A stretch of DNA of 64,000 nt, taken from positions 638,047 to 702,046 of the forward strand of contig NZ_WEIC01000001.1 of the NCBI RefSeq assembly GCF_009184395.1. The letters run 5' to 3'. Made by a program: the position numbers and the translations under genes. The stretch is from Amylibacter sp. SFDW26 (GTDB lineage: Bacteria > Pseudomonadota > Alphaproteobacteria > Rhodobacterales > Rhodobacteraceae). The notes beneath the pieces were generated by a model. It searched no databases. It was not told the origin of the DNA and was given only the letters and a program-made list of their open reading frames with translations. Below are positions 3,151-50,807 of this stretch, piece after piece. Within the stretch, counting starts at the first letter, position 1; every line of letters begins with the position of its first letter.

Positions 3151-4818
3151 TTACTCCGCAGCGACGCGCGTTTCAGGATAAAGCGCCGCTTTAAACGGTG
3201 CTGATCCCAAACGGCGATACGTTTCAAGGAAAGTTTCATCCGCGCTTGTGCGGACTTCTAAGTAAGCGCCGACCAACCGTTCGATCGCAGGTACGATTTC
3301 TGTATACGAGAAACCTGGGCCAGCACGTTCGCCAATTGCAGCATTTTCAGAGCCGTCACCACCCAAAGTGATCTGATAGCTTTCAACACCAGCTTTATCC
3401 AAACCAAGGATACCAATGTGACCCACGTGGTGGTGACCACAAGCATTGATACAGCCAGAGATTTTGATTTTCAGTTCACCAATCTCATGCTCAAGTTTCA
3501 ACTCGTCAAAACGTGTTGCGATTTGCTGTGCAATAGGGATCGAGCGCGCTGTAGCCAAAGCACAGTAATCCATACCCGGGCAGGCGATGATGTCTGAGAT
3601 CAAACCAATGTTAGCCGTCGCCAAACCATGTTCACGTAATTTTGCATGGATTGCAGGGATGTGCGACTTGTGCACGTGTGGCAGGATCACGTTTTGCTCG
3701 TGGCTGATACGCAGTTCGTCATGCGCGTATTCTTTCGCCAAATCTGCCATAACGCGCATTTGTTCGGATGTCGCATCACCCGGTGTTTGCCCGTGCTTCT
3801 TGATGCTGATCGAAACGATCGCATAATCAGGATTACGATGTTCAAACAAGTTTGTATCCGCAAAAGAACGGAAAATAGGATCGCTGTTCACAGCCTCATC
3901 AAAAGCAGTAGTTGGTGCTTTCAAATAATCAGGTGCAGCAAAGGCTTCGCGAATGTCTTTGAACAACTCTTGATCATAGCCAGCAAAGGCTTCGCGTTGG
4001 ATGATGAAACGTTCTTCAACCAACTCCTGAATTTTTTCGATACCGTTTTCATGTACTGTGATCTTAATACGCGCTTTGTATTTGTTATCACGACGACCAA
4101 GGGCGTTATAAACTTGCATGATCGCTTCTGAATACGGCAGCAAGTCTTCGCGTGGAAGGAATTCACGCAAAACCTTACCGATCATCGGTGTACGGCCCAA
4201 ACCGCCGCCGACAAGAACTTTGTAACCAATTTCGCCAGCTGCATTCTTAACGACCTGAATACCAACATCATGCGCTTTAATAACAGCACGGTCTGTTTCA
4301 GAGCCAGTTACTGCAAACTTAAACTTACGACCCAAGAAGGCAAACTCTGGATGATCTGTTGACCATTGGCGCAACAACTCAGCAGTCGGGCGCGGGTCTT
4401 CAATTTCGTCCTTAGCAGCGCCAGAAAAATGGTCGGCGGTCACGTTGCGGATACAGTTGCCTGATGTTTGAATGGCGTGCATTTCCACGTCTGCCAAAGC
4501 TTGCAACATATCTGGCACGTCTTTCAGTTTTGGCCAGTTGTATTGGATATTTTGACGCGTGGTGAAATGGCCATAACCTTTATCCCACTTGTCCGCTACA
4601 TCTGCCAACACATGCATCTTTTGTGAATTCAGCGTGCCATATGGGATTGCAACGCGCAGCATATAAGCGTGTAATTGCAAATACAGGCCGTTCATCAAAC
4701 GCAAAGGCTTGAATTCATCTTCTGTTAGGCTGCCATCAACGCGACGTTCCACTTGGGAACGGAATTGTTTCACACGTGTTTGGATGAAATCTTTGTCAAA
4801 TTCGTTATAGCTGTACAT
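3151..4818 (-). CDS. cysI: Siroheme-dependent sulfite (nitrite/sulfite) reductase
   Basis: 555-aa hemoprotein that reduces sulfite to sulfide with six electrons. Siroheme/[4Fe-4S] ligands are visible as C-x5-C in CPGMDYC (about residue 413) and C-x3-C in GCINACGHHHVGH (about residue 460). The duplicated nitrite/sulfite reductase ferredoxin-like halves are recognisable, for example MNGLYLQLHAYMLRVAIPYG and TTRQNIQYNW in the N-terminal half. Placement between cysG and cysH, with no nitrate or nitrite genes nearby, points to sulfite as substrate. Nitrite is the alternative from family membership. Start ATG at 4818 follows the DUF2849 stop by 3 bp. Confidence 0.93.
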   Translation of the reverse strand: MYSYNEFDKDFIQTRVKQFRSQVERRVDGSLTEDEFKPLRLMNGLYLQLHAYMLRVAIPYGTLNSQKMHVLADVADKWDKGYGHFTTRQNIQYNWPKLKDVPDMLQALADVEMHAIQTSGNCIRNVTADHFSGAAKDEIEDPRPTAELLRQWSTDHPEFAFLGRKFKFAVTGSETDRAVIKAHDVGIQVVKNAAGEIGYKVLVGGGLGRTPMIGKVLREFLPREDLLPYSEAIMQVYNALGRRDNKYKARIKITVHENGIEKIQELVEERFIIQREAFAGYDQELFKDIREAFAAPDYLKAPTTAFDEAVNSDPIFRSFADTNLFEHRNPDYAIVSISIKKHGQTPGDATSEQMRVMADLAKEYAHDELRISHEQNVILPHVHKSHIPAIHAKLREHGLATANIGLISDIIACPGMDYCALATARSIPIAQQIATRFDELKLEHEIGELKIKISGCINACGHHHVGHIGILGLDKAGVESYQITLGGDGSENAAIGERAGPGFSYTEIVPAIERLVGAYLEVRTSADETFLETYRRLGSAPFKAALYPETRVAAE

Positions 4819-43360: not shown

Positions 43361-43435
43361 TCCGACGTAGCTCAGCGGTAGAGCAGTTGACTGTTAATCA
43401 ATTGGTCGTAGGTTCGATCCCTACCGTCGGAGCCA
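43361..43435 (+). tRNA. tRNA-Asn(GTT)
   Basis: 75-nt cloverleaf. Acceptor TCCGACG / CGTCGGA, D-arm GTAGCTCAGCGGTAGAGC, anticodon stem-loop TTGACTGTTAATCAA with anticodon GTT, T-arm GTAGG-TTCGATC-CCTAC, encoded CCA. Its 3' 17 bp are duplicated 1.5 kb downstream, marking it as an integration site. Confidence 0.97.
43419..43435 (+). repeat. Left att core (3' end of tRNA-Asn)
   Basis: CCCTACCGTCGGAGCCA, the last 17 nt of tRNA-Asn, is repeated exactly at 44950-44966 in the same orientation. This is the usual footprint of tyrosine-integrase insertion into a tRNA 3' end. Confidence 0.85.
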
Positions 43436-43471
43436 GAAAACTTTATAAGTTATTGTTTTTAAATGATAATT

Positions 43472-43484
43472 TAGGTTCGATCCC
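43472..43484 (+). repeat. 13-bp copy of the tRNA-Asn T-arm
   Basis: TAGGTTCGATCCC repeats tRNA positions 43409-43421 exactly, 63 bp downstream and outside the tRNA. It may be a remnant of an earlier insertion/excision event or part of the element end. Confidence 0.7.
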
Positions 43485-43498
43485 ATATTTTCTGGCAT

Positions 43499-43532
43499 TT
43501 GCATTACAAATTGCATTACATTTTGTATTACG
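43499..43532 (+). repeat. Left array: three decamers at 12-bp spacing
   Basis: TTGCATTACA at 43499-43508 and 43511-43520, and TTGTATTACG at 43523-43532, spaced exactly 12 bp start to start. The array resembles arm-type integrase or directionality-factor sites, or short iterons. The same decamer array recurs at the right end. Confidence 0.75.
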
Positions 43533-43607
43533 CATCGTGTTTAGCTTCTAATTAATAAATCTTAAGATTGACGCCGATTCACCCGTATTAACTCAAAATC
43601 AAATGAG

Positions 43608-44675
43608 TCAATCTTCATCCTCTTGTTGATCAAATCGTTTCTTTTCTAATAGAAGAGCATTTTGTTTGGCGGTTTGGGCATTTTCTATTAACTCACTAAC
43701 TTCATTAACTATTGCAGCAGCCTCTTCATCAAAATCCTCATCATCAAAGACGACCGAGCGCGGAGGTGAAAAGTCAACATCACCACCTTTTTCACGAAAA
43801 GATAGGTATTTCTTTATTGCATTTTCGAGTACAGCTTTCTGTTCTGGTTTTATTTTATTTGGGAGATGTTCTGTAACTTCTTTTAACGCTTCTTGTGAAA
43901 TAGCTTTGCGTCGAGTCTTTTCCATAGTGCGGAGCTCTTTTTCAACTGTTGCATTGTGCATTTTTTTTGCACGTAAATCTTCTAGTTGATCAGCAACACC
44001 AATAGAATAACTTGCGATTTCCGACGCATGTTTTGCTATGATTGCTAATAATTTGGTTACAGCAGCCGTTGCCGTTAAAAATACAATAATCGAACCATTT
44101 GAAACACCAATAATATCAGTTTCTTCAGGGCGTTCATCAACAGCCCCAGCTACACCTGAAATTATTTGCTCCCAATCCTTAGACGATTTTGTAAGATCTG
44201 GTACATTCTCTATAGAAGCATCTTTCTGAAACATAACCGCAATACGGTATTTGTCTTCGGGCAGGTCACTTGTTTCTAAATCGAAACCTAGTGGAATGGC
44301 AGAGTCTACAAATGTTTTGAGTTCACTTTGAGCTTGTTCAATTCTATTAACTGCCCGTTGAACTTCTTCATATACTGTTGCTGGATCGTAGATGGCAGAT
44401 TTCACAGTTTTCTTTATCCAATAGACACCATTACGTCCTAATAAGTGTTCTATGCCTATATGTCCTAGGATATTCATTTGGAGCGTGGAAAGCTCTGAAA
44501 TTGGTACGTTGTATAGAAATTCAACAAGTGTATCGAGTGGGGCGGTAACTGGTTGTGCGCTGGCTTGTTGAGCGTTATTTGCTAAGACATCACGTAGAGG
44601 TCTATAATTATCTAATATTTGCGGTGTCCAAATTTCGATCCATTGGTTAAGTGTCAAAATATCTCTAACGTCCAT
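43608..44675 (-). CDS. Hypothetical cargo protein of the tRNA-Asn mini-island
   Basis: 355 aa, not recognised. N-terminal helical part (1-125) with LNQWIEIWTPQILDNYRPLR. A middle region ends in ETDIIGVSNGSIIVFL followed by a hydrophobic helix (about 194-215) that could be a membrane segment or a buried strand-helix. Charged helices with coiled-coil character follow (225-295), then an acidic C-terminus. The GSIIVFL strand plus hydrophobic helix recalls adaptor modules of bacterial conflict proteins, but only weakly. Its position as the only gene of a tRNA-bounded element makes a defence, toxin or regulatory role plausible, unproven. Confidence 0.75.
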   Translation of the reverse strand: MDVRDILTLNQWIEIWTPQILDNYRPLRDVLANNAQQASAQPVTAPLDTLVEFLYNVPISELSTLQMNILGHIGIEHLLGRNGVYWIKKTVKSAIYDPATVYEEVQRAVNRIEQAQSELKTFVDSAIPLGFDLETSDLPEDKYRIAVMFQKDASIENVPDLTKSSKDWEQIISGVAGAVDERPEETDIIGVSNGSIIVFLTATAAVTKLLAIIAKHASEIASYSIGVADQLEDLRAKKMHNATVEKELRTMEKTRRKAISQEALKEVTEHLPNKIKPEQKAVLENAIKKYLSFREKGGDVDFSPPRSVVFDDEDFDEEAAAIVNEVSELIENAQTAKQNALLLEKKRFDQQEDED

Positions 44676-44848
44676 GATATCCCCAAAATTAAAGTACTGA
44701 TAATAATTAATCAGAATCGTTGAAAATTAATTGCTCTACGATTGCACAAGGGTAAGCTAAGGTAAATGAAGCGTACTTTTCATCCCATATAAACAGTAAT
44801 CTAACCTGAGTGTTTAGGTTGCTGTTCATATGGAAACATTAATAATTT

Positions 44849-44882
44849 TTGCATTACATTTTGCATTACAATTTGCATTACA
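44849..44882 (+). repeat. Right array: three decamers at 12-bp spacing
   Basis: Three exact copies of TTGCATTACA at 44849-44858, 44861-44870 and 44873-44882, again 12 bp start to start and in the same orientation as the left array. The gap bases between copies are TT and AT. Confidence 0.8.
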
Positions 44883-44900
44883 TTATGGAGCCAATATTAA

Positions 44901-44922
44901 ATTATTGTTTTAAAACAATAAT
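44901..44922. repeat. 22-bp perfect palindrome at the right end of the mini-island
   Basis: Half-site ATTATTGTTTT is followed immediately by its reverse complement. It lies between the decamer array and the right att core. An imperfect form with the same TTATTGTTTT half begins at 43450 near the left core. Candidate recombinase or regulator site. Confidence 0.75.
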
Positions 44923-44949
44923 ATATACTACCCCTGCAACGGGATCGCC

Positions 44950-44966
44950 CCCTACCGTCGGAGCCA
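44950..44966 (+). repeat. Right att core (copy of tRNA-Asn 3' end)
   Basis: Exact copy of the last 17 nt of tRNA-Asn including CCA, without the rest of a tRNA. Directly followed by an A-run and an intrinsic terminator. Confidence 0.85.
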
Positions 44967-44972
44967 AAAAAC

Positions 44973-45002
44973 AAAACCTTAGCGGGAAATCGCTAAGGTT
45001 TT
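44973..45002 (+). terminator. Strong intrinsic terminator, probably the displaced tRNA-Asn terminator
   Basis: AAAACCTTAGCG (44973-44984) and CGCTAAGGTTTT (44991-45002) form a perfect 12-bp stem with a 6-nt loop, then GATCGTTTTTAG. It starts 7 bp after the right att core, the expected distance from an uninterrupted tRNA-Asn. Confidence 0.85.
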
Positions 45003-45108
45003 GATCGTTTTTAGTCTCTTTTTAGTCACTTAAATCATAAGATTTTGTTATGTTTAGCTATGGGAATATCTGGAGTGAGTAGGGGTATTACACTCCCCAT
45101 AATCATCT

Positions 45109-45318
45109 TCACCACATCTGATCCGCGATCTATAACTCCTCTGGCCCGACAGTATTCGCGTAGATTGCAGTAGTGGTAATGAAAGCATGTCCCATCCACT
45201 TTTGCAACATGTTGAGTTGCACACCTGATCGGACAGCATTGATACCGTAACCGTGGCGCAAGCCCTTGGGGCTGACTTGTGGGCCTGTGACCTTGGCATC
45301 CTTCATGACAGCCTTTAT
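45109..45318 (-). pseudogene. Tyrosine recombinase (integrase) C-terminal fragment, degenerate
   Basis: Read from 45318 on the minus strand the frame gives AVMKDAKVTGPQVSPKGLRH and continues through GVQLNMLQKWMGHA to TTTAIYANTVGPEEL, then TAG at 45130-45132. The Arg of LRHGYG, the His of GH and the Tyr of AIYAN are the catalytic RHRY residues of phage-type integrases. After the stop the frame still matches the family (IADQMW), and an in-frame TGA lies just upstream (45319-45321). So this is a broken remnant lacking the N-terminal and most catalytic parts. Confidence 0.85.
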
Positions 45319-45818
45319 TCATCATTCCAGAAAGACAGAACCTGCGGATAAGTCACAGATTGAAGAATCTGTCCGCCTGAACGCTTTATCTGTGAACATC
45401 GTCCAATATCGGTTAGTGCTGAATTGGGGCGTGATAACAGTGCCAAAAGCGCAAAACGTAAGAGATTCCATCCTCACACCCCACGCATCTGCCCATTGCT
45501 TTTTAAGCGCATCAATGATGCCAGAAGCAATCAATGGACGGTAATGCTGTGACTTTCTCAGTGAATGAGTTTTGCATCACGCGATTGTCGCGCGTTAGAT
45601 TATATCGCGAAAGACGTGAGCCCTTATGGTTTCTGACATATCGCTATTTTTTAGTCGAACGGATTTAATCACAACGCCCTACAGGCTGATTAAATTTTAG
45701 ATAATCAAAGACCTTTTCAAGCCCCAAGCTCCCGAAATAGGATTATCTTCGATCAGTGCTCTCGGAAAGCTCTACATAAATGCAAAGCTTTCCGCATTAT
45801 CTTCGGTAAGATTAAATC
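45319..45818. other. 500-bp region of gene remnants between the integrase relic and the RTX gene
   Basis: Short minus-strand frames (for example one containing PLIASGIIDALKKQWADAW, and another further upstream with LTRDNRVMQNSF) read like coding sequence broken by frameshifts, but no family is recognised. A stem GGAAAGCT (45764-45771) / AGCTTTCC (45786-45793) lies 26 bp after the RTX stop and may end its transcript, though no T-run follows. Confidence 0.5.
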
Positions 45819-48800
45819 TTAGAATATAAACTCATCTTCATGTGTCTGATCTAAAGTTGCAGCAATAAAGTCAGCCTGAGACAGTGTTGTTCCATCCTCA
45901 AAAGTAAACTGATTAACGCTCGCACGGCTCGCAATTGTACTGGATGATGATAATGTATTTAGAATTGTAATAGTATCGTCTGTATTACCTTCAAATCCAA
46001 TCACAAGGTCATCATGACCATTACCATCAATATCGGCTTTGAATGTGAATATATCTTCCACAGTCAGACCATTTTCAAAAACCAGAGTATCAACTTCCAA
46101 GTAGTTTGATGAGTTTGATAAAATCGTATCGTTCCCCATGCCGATACCCGCAACAAATGTATCATTCTCACCGGAACCATTGAATGCATCATCGCCAGCA
46201 GTACCAAGTGTCTCTGCTAGGAATTCTTCGCGGGTCAATATAGTGCCATCTGAGAAGGTAAATTGATCAACATGTTGGCGGTCTGAACTATGGCTATCGT
46301 TCCCATCGTTTAAAATCGTGAAGGTGCCTTCTGCGTTTTTAAATCCAATGACTAGGTTATCACCATCATAAGTTGAATATACATCCGCAGCAGTTATGCC
46401 TTCTTCAAACGTCAAAGTATCGACTTCCAAGTAATTTGATGAATTAGAAGACAGTGTATCATCACCTTGACCTGCGCGAACGATAAACGTGTCATTCTCA
46501 CCAGAGCCATTGAATGCATCATTACCAGCGGTGCCAAGTGTCTCTGCAAGGAACTCTTCGCGGGTAAATGTAGTCCCATCCGAGAAGGTAAATTGATCAA
46601 CATGTTGACGGTCTGAATTATGGCTATCGTTCCCATCGTTTAAAATCGTGAAGGTGCCTTCTGCGTTTTTAAATCCAATGACTAAGTTATCACCATCATA
46701 AGTCGTATAGATATCTGCAGCAGTGATGCCTTCATCAAATTGTACTGTGTCCACTTCAAGATAGTTTGACGTATTCAATGAGACTGTGTCGTCGCCTTGC
46801 CCATATCCAACGTAGAATATATCGTTTCCAGCAGTTCCTGTGAAAGCGTCATCTGCTACTGGCGTATTGCCAAGCGCATTATTTAATGCCTGTTCTATGA
46901 ATTCAGCTTGAGTAAGAACGGTACCATCAGAAAAGACAACTTGATCAAGGTTCGTTATAGAACTGCCACCACTGTTCAAAATAGTAAGGGACCCTTCTTG
47001 TACTACGAACTGAATACGTAGATCACCGCCATTATCAACCGCATATATATCATCTATGGTTATACCGTCCTCAAAGGTCAGAGTATCAACCTCTAAATAA
47101 TGAGAAGAACTCAAAGACAGGGTATCATCACCTTGACCTGCGCGAACAATAAACGTGTCATTCTCACCAGAGCCGTTGAATGCATCATTGCCAGCGGTGC
47201 CCAGTGTTTCGATTAAGAACTCTTCGCGCGACAATGTCGTACCATCTGAGAACGTAAATTGATCGACTTGATGGAAAGCCGCATTCCCATCGTCATCCGC
47301 ATAATTCAGGATCGTTAATGTTCCTGCTGCATTTCTAAACCCGATAACCAAATTATTGCCATCATAGGTCGTATAGATATCTGCAACAGTAACACCTTCT
47401 TCAAAGGTAACAGTATCCACTTCGAGGTAATGGGCTGAGTTCGACGACAGTGTATCATCACCTTGACCTGCGCGAACGATAAACGTGTCATTCTCACCAG
47501 AGCCATTGAATGCATCATTACCAGCGGTGCCCAGTGTTTCGATTAAGAACTCTTCTTGAGAGAACGTTGTACCATCTGAAAACGTAAATTGATCGACTTG
47601 ATGGAAAGCCGCATTCCCATCGTCATCCGCATAATTCAGAATGGTTAATGTGCCCTCGGTATTCTTAAAACCAATAACCAAGTTATTGCCATCATAGGTC
47701 GTATAGATATCTGCAACAGTAACACCTTCTTCAAAGGTAACAGTATCGACCTCAAGATAGTTCGAGGAATTCGACGACAGTGTATCATCACCCTGACCTG
47801 CGCGAACGATAAACGTGTCATTCTCACCAGAGCCATTGAATGCATCATTGCCAGCGGTGCCCAGTGTTTCGATTAAGAACTCTTCACGCGACAATGTCGT
47901 ACCATCTGAGAACGTAAATTGATCGACTTGATGGAAAGCCGCATTCCCATCGTCATCCGCATAATTCAGGATCGTTAATGTACCCTCGGCATTCTTAAAA
48001 CCAATAACCAAATTATTGCCATCATAGGTCGTATAGATATCTGCAACGGTGACACCTTCTTCAAAGGTAACTGTATCAACCTCGAGATAGTTTGCTGAGT
48101 TTTCGACAACTTGATCATCACCTTGACCAGATTGTAAATAAAAATTATCGCTTTTTCCCCAGCCATAAAAAATATCATCCCCAGCCGTTCCCAAAGCCTG
48201 ATCTATATCGGATAATGTATATATTATGCCATCGGCAAATTCGATTAACTCAAGCTCCTCATTATGGCTATTATAATGATTGGCTAAAGTAATCGTACTA
48301 CCGTCTGGAAGCGTAAGGATAAGATCTCGATCTATATTCTGTGAGAAAGACACGTCACTTGCATTGATATCTGTGAATACAAGTTTATCCTGATATTGAT
48401 TATGTGTTGAGCCAAAATCAATGATAGTATCGCTGCCATCCCCACTTGTATAAATATATGTATCTTGTGCGTAATTACTTGTGATTATATCGTCGCCAGC
48501 GCCACCAACAACAATACTCTCTCCATTATTCACTTCGATTTGATCATCACCAGAGCGCCCAAAAATAGCTCCTGAACCATTTAAAGTAAGTGTATCAGTA
48601 CCTGTTGTGCCATCTACGAACACCCCAACGTCGAGATATTCGGCAATAAGCGAAACATCAATATCTTCAAACAAGCCGATAACAAGTTCACCTAGACTAT
48701 CAATATCATTATCGAAGTGAGCCAACACTTCTAGCGCATCAGCATCTGTTCCCAATCCATCAGCGCGGAATAAATCGATGAAGTTTTTTACGAAAGCCGC

Positions 48801-50807
48801 ATAATTACCCTCAATCGTATCGGTAAATGGATTTACTGATAAACCACTAAACGGTTCTAACGCGCCAAGATCGGCATCGGCACCTTCTTGCAACAAAACA
48901 GTCCAAACGGATTCAACTAAAAAACGAGATGTCGTATATGAAAGCATTTCATCGTATGACGCTTGTAAATCCGGAATCACTTCCTCTGGTGGGTTATTCA
49001 AAATCACATCATCTGGCGCGATAAAGTTTCCACTTTCTGAAAACTCTTGGCCCAATAAGTTCTGAATAAATGCAAACCGTTTTGCATCAAAATCAGGTAC
49101 GGAGATATCTTCAATGTCGCCTTCATAGATACCGTCGATTGGCGACACATATGGCTCACCACCTGATAATAATGTCTGAAAACGTGGGGCTTCCTCTGCG
49201 TAAAAAGTACCATTCCCAAAAGAGCCAAAAGTCCCAAATGAAGGGGTTCCCAAATCTCTTTCATCGATCCATTCTTGTTCTACTATAAAGTCCAAAGCCT
49301 CAAACGGAGCACTCACTTCACCAACGTGACCTGGCACTGTATCTGGTCGCGTTACATAATAAATCACCCCAGCGACAGCGGGCGGTGGCAAAGGCACACC
49401 ATTAAAGGGGGGGACCCAATTTGGATCTAAATCACTTTTATTATAAAGCAGCTTAGTCGTAAGCTCTTGAGCCTCGCCAAGCCAAATAGTTTCGTCTGCA
49501 ACATCGCCCCATTGGAATAAGAACTCTTCAAACCCTGTTTCAAACATATCGAAATCACCAGATCGCACATCCAAAATCAGGTCTTCGGCTGCTGTAACCA
49601 GAGTGTCATCCTGTGCAAAAGCAATATTCAAATCAGCAATATTGCCAAAGCCCCGTAAAAAAGGCAGGGCGTTAACCGCAGCACTGATTTCAAGATCATC
49701 AGGGACATTGGCTTGGGTATCTGTTTGGGAAAGCTCAAATAAAACCTCACCAGATTCCGTAGTTGTACCATCGCTAAATTCAACAGTAGAGGTTTCAATG
49801 ACCTGATTACCGTTGATGGTGAAATCCGTTTCCGTGACATTCAGATTAAGCTCTGTAATGCCAGCTTCTGATAACGTTTGCAGCTCACCCTCATCGGACA
49901 CGCCGTTCCCATTTGCATCTTGCCAAATCAACAACGTATCAAAATCATCATCATCAGCGTTAACAACACCGTCTCCGTTCGTGTCATAGACCGCTAACTG
50001 TTCATAACCCGTTTCGGTTTCCGATCCAAACACCTCTGAAATGTCATCAATGGTTCCATTCCCATTGGCATCAACCGCTAACAGACCATCATCAGGGGCA
50101 ACCCATGCCGTGTTTTCCGCAAACCCATCGCCATCAAGATCGAAATAAGCATCTGACCCTTCAAGGCTCGTAAGTTCAATGCCATCGCCATCAAGATCAA
50201 TCACCAACGGATCAATTGGAGGGGTCAGAGCATCAACTAAGTCTTCAAGCCAGTCGGGAAAACCCAAGTCATCTGGGAACAGGTTAGCTATTTCATTATA
50301 TAAATTTTCATAATAGCTTTCTAAAAAACCACCTAGTAATGATGCACCTACAATTGTTAAACCTATTGTAAGTGCTGATGCAATCAAACCAGCGCCCAAT
50401 AAAGGTGCAGCGGCCAAACCAAAAGCTCCACCGATAATACCTCCAACAGCTGCGCCAATTACGGCACCAAACCCACCAGCCAATTGTTGCCCAATACTTT
50501 CACCAGAAGCCCATGCTTGCCCTACCTCAATTCCTTCTAAAACCGTTGCAACTACTGCATTACCTTGCAGAAGAGTTCGAGAAAGTGCCGCCCCATTTAA
50601 ACCAGATTGCGGAAAAGCTCTATAAATCTCTTCTACTACGCTATCTAAAAAATCATGAGCGACTGCGGTAAGCGTAGTGATATCTGCAATCGGGATGTTA
50701 CCCCCAGATGCGATATTATCTATACTCTGCCTAAAATCTTGAATCGCATCTCTGAATGCCTGCGTATTTAAAGATTGTGTAAAACTATCTGCTGTTACAT
50801 GAGTCAC
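45819..50807 (-). CDS. Large RTX-like secreted protein with glycine-zipper region, EF-hand-like Ca sites and seven tandem repeats
   Basis: 1662 aa with no Sec signal, as expected for type I secretion. N-terminal helical part; a Gly/Ala-rich glycine-zipper hydrophobic region at about 106-162 (GGFGAVIGAAVGGIIGGAFG). A calcium-loop region follows at about 200-305 (DLDGDG twice, DANGNGTIDD, DTNGDGVVNADD, DANGNGVSDEG), typical of FrpC/hemolysin-like RTX proteins. A unique middle (about 350-770), RTX-type nonapeptides (about 780-820, GRSGDD, GGAGDD), then seven repeats of about 110 aa, each GTAGND...GQGDD...YLEVDT (from residue 872). The acidic, aromatic end HEDEFIF suits a type I secretion signal. 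No T1SS genes nearby. Could be a bacteriocin-like toxin or an adhesin/surface protein. Confidence 0.88.
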   Translation of the reverse strand: MTHVTADSFTQSLNTQAFRDAIQDFRQSIDNIASGGNIPIADITTLTAVAHDFLDSVVEEIYRAFPQSGLNGAALSRTLLQGNAVVATVLEGIEVGQAWASGESIGQQLAGGFGAVIGAAVGGIIGGAFGLAAAPLLGAGLIASALTIGLTIVGASLLGGFLESYYENLYNEIANLFPDDLGFPDWLEDLVDALTPPIDPLVIDLDGDGIELTSLEGSDAYFDLDGDGFAENTAWVAPDDGLLAVDANGNGTIDDISEVFGSETETGYEQLAVYDTNGDGVVNADDDDFDTLLIWQDANGNGVSDEGELQTLSEAGITELNLNVTETDFTINGNQVIETSTVEFSDGTTTESGEVLFELSQTDTQANVPDDLEISAAVNALPFLRGFGNIADLNIAFAQDDTLVTAAEDLILDVRSGDFDMFETGFEEFLFQWGDVADETIWLGEAQELTTKLLYNKSDLDPNWVPPFNGVPLPPPAVAGVIYYVTRPDTVPGHVGEVSAPFEALDFIVEQEWIDERDLGTPSFGTFGSFGNGTFYAEEAPRFQTLLSGGEPYVSPIDGIYEGDIEDISVPDFDAKRFAFIQNLLGQEFSESGNFIAPDDVILNNPPEEVIPDLQASYDEMLSYTTSRFLVESVWTVLLQEGADADLGALEPFSGLSVNPFTDTIEGNYAAFVKNFIDLFRADGLGTDADALEVLAHFDNDIDSLGELVIGLFEDIDVSLIAEYLDVGVFVDGTTGTDTLTLNGSGAIFGRSGDDQIEVNNGESIVVGGAGDDIITSNYAQDTYIYTSGDGSDTIIDFGSTHNQYQDKLVFTDINASDVSFSQNIDRDLILTLPDGSTITLANHYNSHNEELELIEFADGIIYTLSDIDQALGTAGDDIFYGWGKSDNFYLQSGQGDDQVVENSANYLEVDTVTFEEGVTVADIYTTYDGNNLVIGFKNAEGTLTILNYADDDGNAAFHQVDQFTFSDGTTLSREEFLIETLGTAGNDAFNGSGENDTFIVRAGQGDDTLSSNSSNYLEVDTVTFEEGVTVADIYTTYDGNNLVIGFKNTEGTLTILNYADDDGNAAFHQVDQFTFSDGTTFSQEEFLIETLGTAGNDAFNGSGENDTFIVRAGQGDDTLSSNSAHYLEVDTVTFEEGVTVADIYTTYDGNNLVIGFRNAAGTLTILNYADDDGNAAFHQVDQFTFSDGTTLSREEFLIETLGTAGNDAFNGSGENDTFIVRAGQGDDTLSLSSSHYLEVDTLTFEDGITIDDIYAVDNGGDLRIQFVVQEGSLTILNSGGSSITNLDQVVFSDGTVLTQAEFIEQALNNALGNTPVADDAFTGTAGNDIFYVGYGQGDDTVSLNTSNYLEVDTVQFDEGITAADIYTTYDGDNLVIGFKNAEGTFTILNDGNDSHNSDRQHVDQFTFSDGTTFTREEFLAETLGTAGNDAFNGSGENDTFIVRAGQGDDTLSSNSSNYLEVDTLTFEEGITAADVYSTYDGDNLVIGFKNAEGTFTILNDGNDSHSSDRQHVDQFTFSDGTILTREEFLAETLGTAGDDAFNGSGENDTFVAGIGMGNDTILSNSSNYLEVDTLVFENGLTVEDIFTFKADIDGNGHDDLVIGFEGNTDDTITILNTLSSSSTIASRASVNQFTFEDGTTLSQADFIAATLDQTHEDEFIF
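45822..48194 (-). repeat. Seven ~330-bp in-frame tandem repeats within the RTX-like gene
   Basis: Units of 110 codons (some 105-125) begin LGTAGND/LGTAGDD. Units 2, 3 and the start of 4, and units 5 and 6, are nearly identical at DNA level; the first and last units diverge. Pattern suggests recent duplication or gene conversion inside the array. Copy number is likely variable and hard to assemble with short reads. Confidence 0.9.

What the first reader, a model, noticed from the sequence alone, without database searches (positions are those of the whole stretch)
43419..44966. 1.5-kb integrase-less mini-island in tRNA-Asn with a single unknown gene
An exact 17-bp copy of the tRNA-Asn 3' end bounds a segment with one unrecognised 355-aa gene and structured ends but no recombinase. 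Such a minimal, apparently trans-mobilised tRNA-targeted element with a single cargo gene is unusual, and its cargo is a good candidate for a new defence or conflict function.
Basis: partly seen in the sequence, partly recalled or inferred. Interest (0 to 1): 0.75.

Follow-up and report, generated by a model that had tools for sequence, protein, structure and literature searches.

The report
Tiny helper-dependent DNA element in tRNA-Asn
A 1.5-kb stretch of DNA carrying one unknown gene sits in a bacterial tRNA gene with what look like the landing signals of a mobile element but no enzyme to move itself, and a second element with the same signals but a different gene and a different tRNA suggests a small family that borrows another element's integrase.

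Summary
An exact 17-bp copy of the tRNA-Asn 3' end lies 1,531 bp downstream and encloses one 355-aa gene and no recombinase. New here: (1) each end carries three 12-bp-spaced repeats (TTTGCATTACA-like), the form expected of integrase arm-binding sites. (2) A congener (G423, uncultured Amylibacter) has a 1.4-kb integrase-less element with a matching left end and such repeats at both ends, but in tRNA-Leu and with an unrelated 163-aa gene. (3) In 394 family genomes the exact paired repeat occurs at four places: three in this element, one between a tRNA-Arg and a DUF6538 tyrosine-integrase gene in G288. That points to the class of integrase that would move it in trans. No integrase with matching repeats was found in the host genome. 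(4) The cargo family is rare and patchy; a 33%-identical homologue rides in a 10-kb tRNA-Asn-integrated, capsid-encoding satellite-like element. Integrase-less att-bounded elements are known (CIMEs; tRNA-tail islands), so this is a new variant of a known kind. A defence role for the cargo is plausible but untested.

The parts
43361..43435 (+). tRNA-Asn(GTT), integration target, intact
   Evidence: ARAGORN; Rfam tRNA 73 bits
43419..43435 (+). left copy of the 17-bp direct repeat (3' end of tRNA-Asn); attL core
43446..43473 (.). left AT-rich near-palindrome, shared with the left end of the G423 element (pattern AAGTTATTGTTTTTAAANNNTAATTTA)
43498..43532 (+). left array of three 12-bp-spaced arm-type repeats (TTTGCATTACA, ATTGCATTACA, TTTGTATTACG)
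43608..44675 (-). single cargo gene, 355 aa, unknown family, one TM-length hydrophobic segment at residues 196-214
44848..44882 (+). right array of three 12-bp-spaced arm-type repeats (TTTGCATTACA x3)
44902..44921 (.). right perfect palindrome TTATTGTTTTAAAACAATAA (0 of 300 shuffles as good)
44950..44966 (+). right copy of the 17-bp direct repeat; attR core
44972..45003 (.). terminator-like hairpin, probably the tRNA-Asn terminator displaced by the insertion (outside the element; inference)
45154..45321 (-). remnant of a tyrosine integrase (outside the element; one in-frame stop)

Best explanation
It is a non-autonomous, tRNA-targeted integrative element: attL (tRNA-Asn 3' end + palindrome + three arm-type repeats), one accessory gene, attR (three arm-type repeats + palindrome + 17-bp tRNA copy). 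It would be excised and integrated in trans by a DUF6538-type tyrosine integrase carried by another element, whose arm-binding domain recognises the TTTGCATNACA repeats; strand exchange falls within the 17 bp and restores the tRNA. Shown: anatomy, insertion at the tRNA, a second element with matching ends and different cargo, and the same repeats beside a DUF6538 integrase. Inferred: that the repeats are arm sites, that mobilisation happens in trans, and that the cargo serves host or element in conflict with phages or other elements.
For: Exact 17-bp tRNA copy and empty sites in relatives. Same repeats at both ends: 0 of 5000 random draws of two stretches 1.3 kb apart shared such a word (draws near the element not counted). 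G423: matching left end (alignment 81.5, 1000 shuffles max 64; palindrome pattern with 0 mismatches only in G000 and G423 of 33 genus genomes), repeats at both ends, other tRNA, other cargo. In 33 genus genomes all 5 zero-mismatch hits of TTGCATNACANNTTGCATNACA lie in these two elements. In 394 family genomes 3 of 4 exact hits lie in this element and the fourth in the gap between tRNA-Arg and a DUF6538 integrase in G288; the reversed control gave 0. Elements with Arm-DNA-bind_3 integrases: 4 of 5 ends tested (three elements) have a 7-mer or longer repeated at 10-13-bp spacing within about 200 bp of the att, against 238 of 5000 random draws. Low GC: 36.0% against 42.9% for the window; 4 of 312 stretches are as low.
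Against: No integrase with matching repeats was found in the host genome: its single relative of the G288 integrase (C6, tRNA-Thr, DUF6538) has another upstream word, once; G423 has no relative at E <= 1e-10. Upstream of the related integrases of G404, G405 and C6 the TTTG-words read against the integrase, in G288 and G424 with it, so the class is not uniform; for this, newly weighed, I put the confidence at 0.70 instead of 0.72. In G288 no second array or tRNA-Arg tail was found in the roughly 20 kb read downstream. The paired word also occurs in 6 viral contigs with no tRNA in the DNA held. At up to 2 mismatches the genus holds 20 hits, 8 in the two elements, against 11 for the reversed control. 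Only two members are known; G423 lacks the right palindrome, and the left palindromes do not stand out from shuffles. No excised circle or transfer was seen.
Confidence: 0.7

Rival explanations
1. A decayed island: a once autonomous integrase-bearing element (satellite, prophage or ICE) in tRNA-Asn lost its integrase and all else by internal deletion, leaving both att ends and one accessory gene (a CIME), with no continuing mobility.
For: A 33%-identical cargo homologue sits inside a 10-kb tRNA-Asn element with integrase, primase, capsid and portal genes. In G288 the integrase begins about 40 bp after the repeats, near where the cargo gene of the mini-element ends (about 75 bp after its left repeats). 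No partner integrase found in the genome. CIMEs are described as decay products (PMC5704250, passages).
Against: Two elements at different tRNAs have similar sizes (1,531 and 1,404 bp from copy to copy), three repeats at each end (one degenerate in each left array) and an open cargo frame. Full elements with the same repeats might be expected to be commoner than the minis; one candidate was seen (of 394 family genomes) against two minis (of 33 genus genomes). I did not search the spacers for remnants of other genes.
Confidence: 0.24
2. A MITE-like transposable element with terminal inverted repeats that happens to lie behind the tRNA.
For: An inverted repeat pair of 30 nt (83%) lies near the ends (43444-43473 and 44898-44927).
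Against: Both arms are themselves near-palindromes, so direct and inverted matches arise together. The boundaries are a tRNA-tail direct repeat. G423 lacks the right palindrome but keeps repeats and tRNA tail. No further copy of the right end or of the repeat and palindrome patterns in the host genome.
Confidence: 0.03
3. Chance or tRNA duplication: the 17 bp is a relic of a tandem tRNA duplication with unrelated filler.
For: G403 and G397 also show second tRNA-Asn 3' copies (about 45 bp) with other filler.
Against: 17 exact bases against an expectation of 0.02; the same repeats inside both ends, also in G423 in tRNA-Leu.
Confidence: 0.03

Closest known systems
CIME (cis-mobilizable element), as in PMC5704250 and, as a suggestion, the Dehalococcoides ssrA islands of PMC3146451 (passages seen)
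   Same: att sites kept at both ends, no integration or transfer genes; tRNA or tmRNA gene hot spot
   Different: 1.5 kb with one gene; no functional neighbour with matching att sites was seen for cis-mobilisation; ends shared with a second element at another tRNA; points to a tyrosine integrase (DUF6538), whereas the Dehalococcoides integrase is described as a serine recombinase
Additive flexible genomic islands delimited by tRNA-Lys tails in Methylopumilus (PMC10872708, passages seen)
   Same: Repeats of the last 20 nt of a tRNA, 330 bp-42 kb, 1 to 63 CDS, mostly unknown genes, aquatic bacteria
   Different: The passages seen mention no shared arm repeats and one tRNA; here the ends are shared between tRNA-Asn and tRNA-Leu
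Capsid-encoding satellite-like element in tRNA-Asn (L132, IMGVR_UViG_3300002461_000629); cfPICI is the nearest named kind by my recall
   Same: Same target tRNA type and a homologous cargo gene
   Different: Has integrase (Arm-DNA-bind_3), Prim-Pol, capsid and portal genes, a 49-bp repeat and another end repeat (GGGGTAACG, found at the tRNA side only)
CALIN gene-cassette arrays (review PMC11389934, passages)
   Same: By analogy: recombinase-less units that rely on an integrase supplied elsewhere
   Different: attC sites were not searched for here; the boundaries are tRNA tails with arm-type repeats

Membership tests
CIME | attL and attR retained | tested here: met
   by sequence only: 17-bp copies plus matching repeats at both ends; recombination itself not tested
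CIME | no integration or transfer genes | tested here: met
   one ORF of 355 aa without confident family match
CIME | mobilised in cis by an adjacent element of the same att specificity | tested here: inconclusive
   the neighbour is only a remnant of a tyrosine integrase
DUF6538-integrase element (non-autonomous relative) | tRNA target with TTTGCATNACA-type 12-bp repeats inside the end | tested here: met
   G288 compared with G000 and G423; only one such integrase element was found
DUF6538-integrase element (non-autonomous relative) | encodes the integrase | tested here: not met
   absent between the ends; so not an autonomous member
Phage satellite (PICI, cfPICI) | integrase plus replication, packaging or capsid-interference genes (recalled) | tested here: not met
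   single-gene content
Tycheposon | tRNA border with tyrosine recombinase, 4-200 kb (as described in PMC10872708) | tested here: not met
   1.5 kb, no recombinase
MITE | terminal inverted repeats with short target duplication, dispersed copies (recalled) | tested here: not met
   tRNA-tail boundaries; no further copies of the ends in the genome
Integron cassette or CALIN | attC sites | not tested
   no attC search was run
Known anti-phage defence family (cargo) | match to a PADLOC model | tested here: not met
   0 PADLOC families for the window protein at E <= 1; one of four aligned proteins touches SAVED_TIR at E 0.0026

The most novel reading that the evidence does not exclude
A cassette-like family of minimal elements in marine Rhodobacteraceae: two complete integrase end-complexes around a single exchangeable gene, kept small by selection and moved wholesale by DUF6538 integrases of passing satellites or prophages, able to switch target tRNA by swapping the 14-17-bp core while keeping the arms. 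It would be a tRNA-based counterpart of integron cassettes.
Probability: 0.3. Interest if true: 0.75.

Novelty: new variant of a known kind. Interest (0 to 1): 0.52.

Why it matters
If such minis are mobile in trans, single genes can move into tRNA sites without carrying any recognisable mobility gene, so island finders that start from integrases would miss them. The ends give a searchable signature (tRNA tail, paired 12-bp repeats, cargo, paired repeats, tRNA tail), and the candidate integrase class (DUF6538) makes the trans-mobilisation question directly testable. The cargo family, found alone, in a satellite-like element and, distantly, beside restriction-modification genes, is a reasonable candidate for a new conflict gene.

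Tried and rejected
Palindrome as a universal mark: an exact scan for TTATTGTTTTTAAANNNTAATTTA gave 31 genome stretches and 1 viral one. Besides the G423 element (L094), one lies right behind a tRNA-Ser (L104, no arm repeats seen) and one before a tRNA-like tail (L107, by eye); apart from L094 and L104 ARAGORN found no tRNA within 300 bp before or 400 bp after. A tRNA-anchored version hit only the own genome among 394 and nothing in viral contigs. Palindromes behind the tRNA in other elements were mostly not rare in shuffles (12 ends tested; fewer than 5 of 300 shuffles as good only for the right end here, 0, and G288, 4). I rest nothing on it beyond the G000/G423 match.

Partner in own genome: 9 Phage_integrase matches in G000 and 4 in G423. 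I annotated the surroundings of the matches on C6, C7 and C9 and of the two G423 matches with open frames over 400 codons; C1:441887, C8:242770 and G423's C3:28432 and C1:1624890 (306-320 codons) I did not follow. The repeat pattern itself was sought in the whole of both genomes and at up to 2 mismatches lies only in the two elements there. In the 6 viral contigs with the paired word I looked for tRNAs (none in the DNA held), not for integrases.

Cargo: no confident Pfam, PHROG, PADLOC or NCBIfam match (best for the window protein phrog_26654, unknown function, E 0.0027); PDB profile search best E 0.39; AlphaFold model poor (two-sequence alignment, mean pLDDT 50.6), so no fold search was made. 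Phages collection: no match. Genome contigs and first viral peptide scans: none. The weak partial hit in G740 (E 1.9e-4) was dropped. Displaced-terminator homology to G404 was not significant.

Literature: ten searches; DUF6538 with integrase gave 0 papers in the held library. I did not find a description of this element, within those searches only. Four papers were seen in passages; the rest only as listings.

Full report
What is there. The window contains tRNA-Asn(GTT) at 43361-43435 and an exact 17-bp copy of its 3' end at 44950-44966, far beyond chance. Between them lies one main open reading frame, 43608-44675 on the minus strand, 355 codons. Just inside each end sit three short repeats at 12-bp spacing: TTTGCATTACA, ATTGCATTACA and TTTGTATTACG on the left (43498-43532), and TTTGCATTACA three times on the right (44848-44882), in the same orientation. 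An AT-rich near-palindrome lies outside the left repeats (43446-43473) and a perfect one outside the right repeats (44902-44921). The longest terminator-like hairpin of the region starts 6 bp behind the second copy; I infer that it is the tRNA's own terminator, displaced. Its sequence match with the hairpin behind the tRNA-Asn of G404 is not significant.

Insertion. Of 33 genomes searched in the genus, 31 matched the query around tRNA-Asn, G416 only through another tRNA-like stretch. I looked at what follows the tRNA-Asn in 25. In five (G120, G424, G412, G396, G394) rnd begins about 60-70 bp behind the tRNA (positions), an empty site. Second tRNA-Asn tails were seen in G000, G403, G397 and, with a mismatch, G415; most loci reach only 1.5 kb downstream, so this is a lower bound. 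The G403 and G397 copies are about 45 bp long and their inserts hold no hit of the paired repeat at up to 2 mismatches, so the tRNA seems to be a hot spot used by several kinds of element. The G397 insert is also a single-gene unit of 1.38 kb without an evident integrase.

Same ends, other cargo. G423 (its contig agrees in length and sequence with CANMGS010000001.1, uncultured Amylibacter sp.) has an element in tRNA-Leu(TAA): tRNA, palindrome AAGTTATTGTTTTTAAA-CAG-TAATTTA, three TTTGCATAACA-type repeats (the first degenerate), a 163-codon gene without family match, three repeats again, and a 14-bp copy of the tRNA-Leu end. The left ends of the two elements align far better than shuffles (81.5 against a maximum of 64 in 1000). 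The G423 right end lacks the palindrome. Both elements are AT-rich (36.0 and 36.2% GC against 42.9 and 45.9% around).

Which recombinase. In elements that do carry an integrase I find the same anatomy with other words. The host's own 20-kb tRNA-Trp element (C9), a tRNA-Ser element of G423 and the viral contig L132 have Arm-DNA-bind_3 integrases, and 4 of the 5 ends tested have a repeat at 11-12-bp spacing, against 238 of 5000 random 200-bp draws; the integrase-side end of L132 is the miss. The exact paired word TTGCATNACANNTTGCATNACA occurs at four places in 394 family genomes: three in this element and one in G288. In G288 it forms three copies in the 148-bp gap between tRNA-Arg(ACG) and a 430-codon integrase with a DUF6538 domain and a Phage_integrase domain. 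Relatives of this integrase occur in 5 of 33 genus genomes at E <= 1e-10; of these only the host's C6 copy was run against Pfam and has DUF6538. Upstream of them I see paired words in G404 (TTTGCTAC, 12 bp) and G405 (TTTGTCCAGAAT, 11 bp) by script, in G424 (TTTGCTACGCA-like) by eye, the G405 word once in C6, and nothing for the two G406 matches. In G404, G405 and C6 the words read against the integrase, in G288 and G424 with it, so the picture is not uniform. I infer that the repeats of the mini-elements are arm sites of a DUF6538 integrase. None with matching repeats was found in G000, and no relative of this integrase in G423, so any movement would need a visiting element. The G288 element's far end was not found in about 20 kb. 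The paired word also turned up in 6 viral contigs with no tRNA in the DNA held.

Cargo. Homologues are rare: 4 other genomes of 393 in the family (31-39% identity) and G699 among 385 of the class (a weaker hit in G740 dropped). They are single genes at scattered places: beside a polA-like gene in G699, between other chromosomal genes elsewhere, and one with an in-frame stop in G067 next to five 11-bp CCATACG repeats (read by eye). One (33% identity over 312 aa) lies in L132, an 11.7-kb viral contig: integrase, Prim-Pol/AAA, HNH, the homologue, capsid and portal genes, between 49-bp tRNA-Asn repeats 10,068 bp apart. A 24% match is on a Photobacterium damselae plasmid, next to an AAA ATPase gene and a type II restriction-modification system. 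All six aligned proteins have one hydrophobic, TM-length stretch at about residue 196. The AlphaFold model is poor. I think a membrane-associated conflict protein is the likeliest role, at perhaps 40%; nothing tests it.

Mechanism and rivals. Best reading: a non-autonomous integrative element that borrows a DUF6538 tyrosine integrase in trans. The serious rival is plain decay of a full element to its two ends plus one gene (a CIME). The two differ in whether the present form still moves. The G423 element, of similar size, with different cargo and repeats at both ends, favours the first; the absence of a partner integrase leaves the second open. On checking the calls I moved the first from 0.72 to 0.70 and the second from 0.22 to 0.24, for the mixed orientation of the words beside the related integrases.

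Known or new. CIMEs are defined as elements that lost integration and transfer genes but kept attL and attR (PMC5704250, passages). Fifteen Dehalococcoides ssrA islands lack integration modules (PMC3146451, passages). Methylopumilus has tRNA-Lys-tail islands of 330 bp to 42 kb with 1-63 CDS (PMC10872708, passages). So the kind is known. The shared arm repeats across two tRNAs with different single cargos, and the pointer to DUF6538 integrases, are the new part as far as the searches named above show.

Noticed in passing
window 45154-45321 (-); also G000 C7:258153-258311 and C1:196229-196356: DNA-similar stretches occur at three places in the host genome, one behind tRNA-Asn and one behind tRNA-Phe; the first scores as a tyrosine-integrase remnant, the second just below the cut-off with a stop, suggesting an older, dead island family.
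   Followed up: partly
L102, L108, L112, L114 and others: The AT-rich palindrome TTATTGTTTTTAAACAATAA-TTTA (or close to it) recurs alone in betaproteobacterial and Legionella DNA, in these four within 80 bp behind a long open reading frame on the same strand; its role is unexplained.
   Followed up: partly
L104 3231-6143: In a Hyphomicrobiales genome the same palindrome lies 15 bp behind tRNA-Ser, followed by a 745-aa gene that looks like a DUF262 (GmrSD-type) protein, by my reading of the sequence only.
   Followed up: no
L048 (G403), about 3741-4569: An insert of about 0.87 kb between two tRNA-Asn 3' copies of about 45 bp, with inverted repeats by eye and no listed ORF over 88 aa.
   Followed up: no
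L054 (G397), between tRNA-Asn copies 1376 bp apart: A second kind of single-gene unit in tRNA-Asn without an evident integrase, with a 229-aa gene containing a SGGLNSSGCHSG...PYHCH stretch.
   Followed up: partly
L132 1550-11666: A 10-kb tRNA-Asn element with integrase, Prim-Pol, capsid and portal genes, possibly a capsid-forming satellite.
   Followed up: partly
L069 8613-8882: In the G423 mini-element a stretch behind the cargo is bounded by an 18-nt inverted repeat (GACGGTCGTTGCC...), perhaps a structured RNA; no Rfam match there at gathering score.
   Followed up: partly
window 45819-50807 (-): A 1662-aa protein with repeated blocks that I read as RTX-like, downstream of the remnant integrase.
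   Followed up: no
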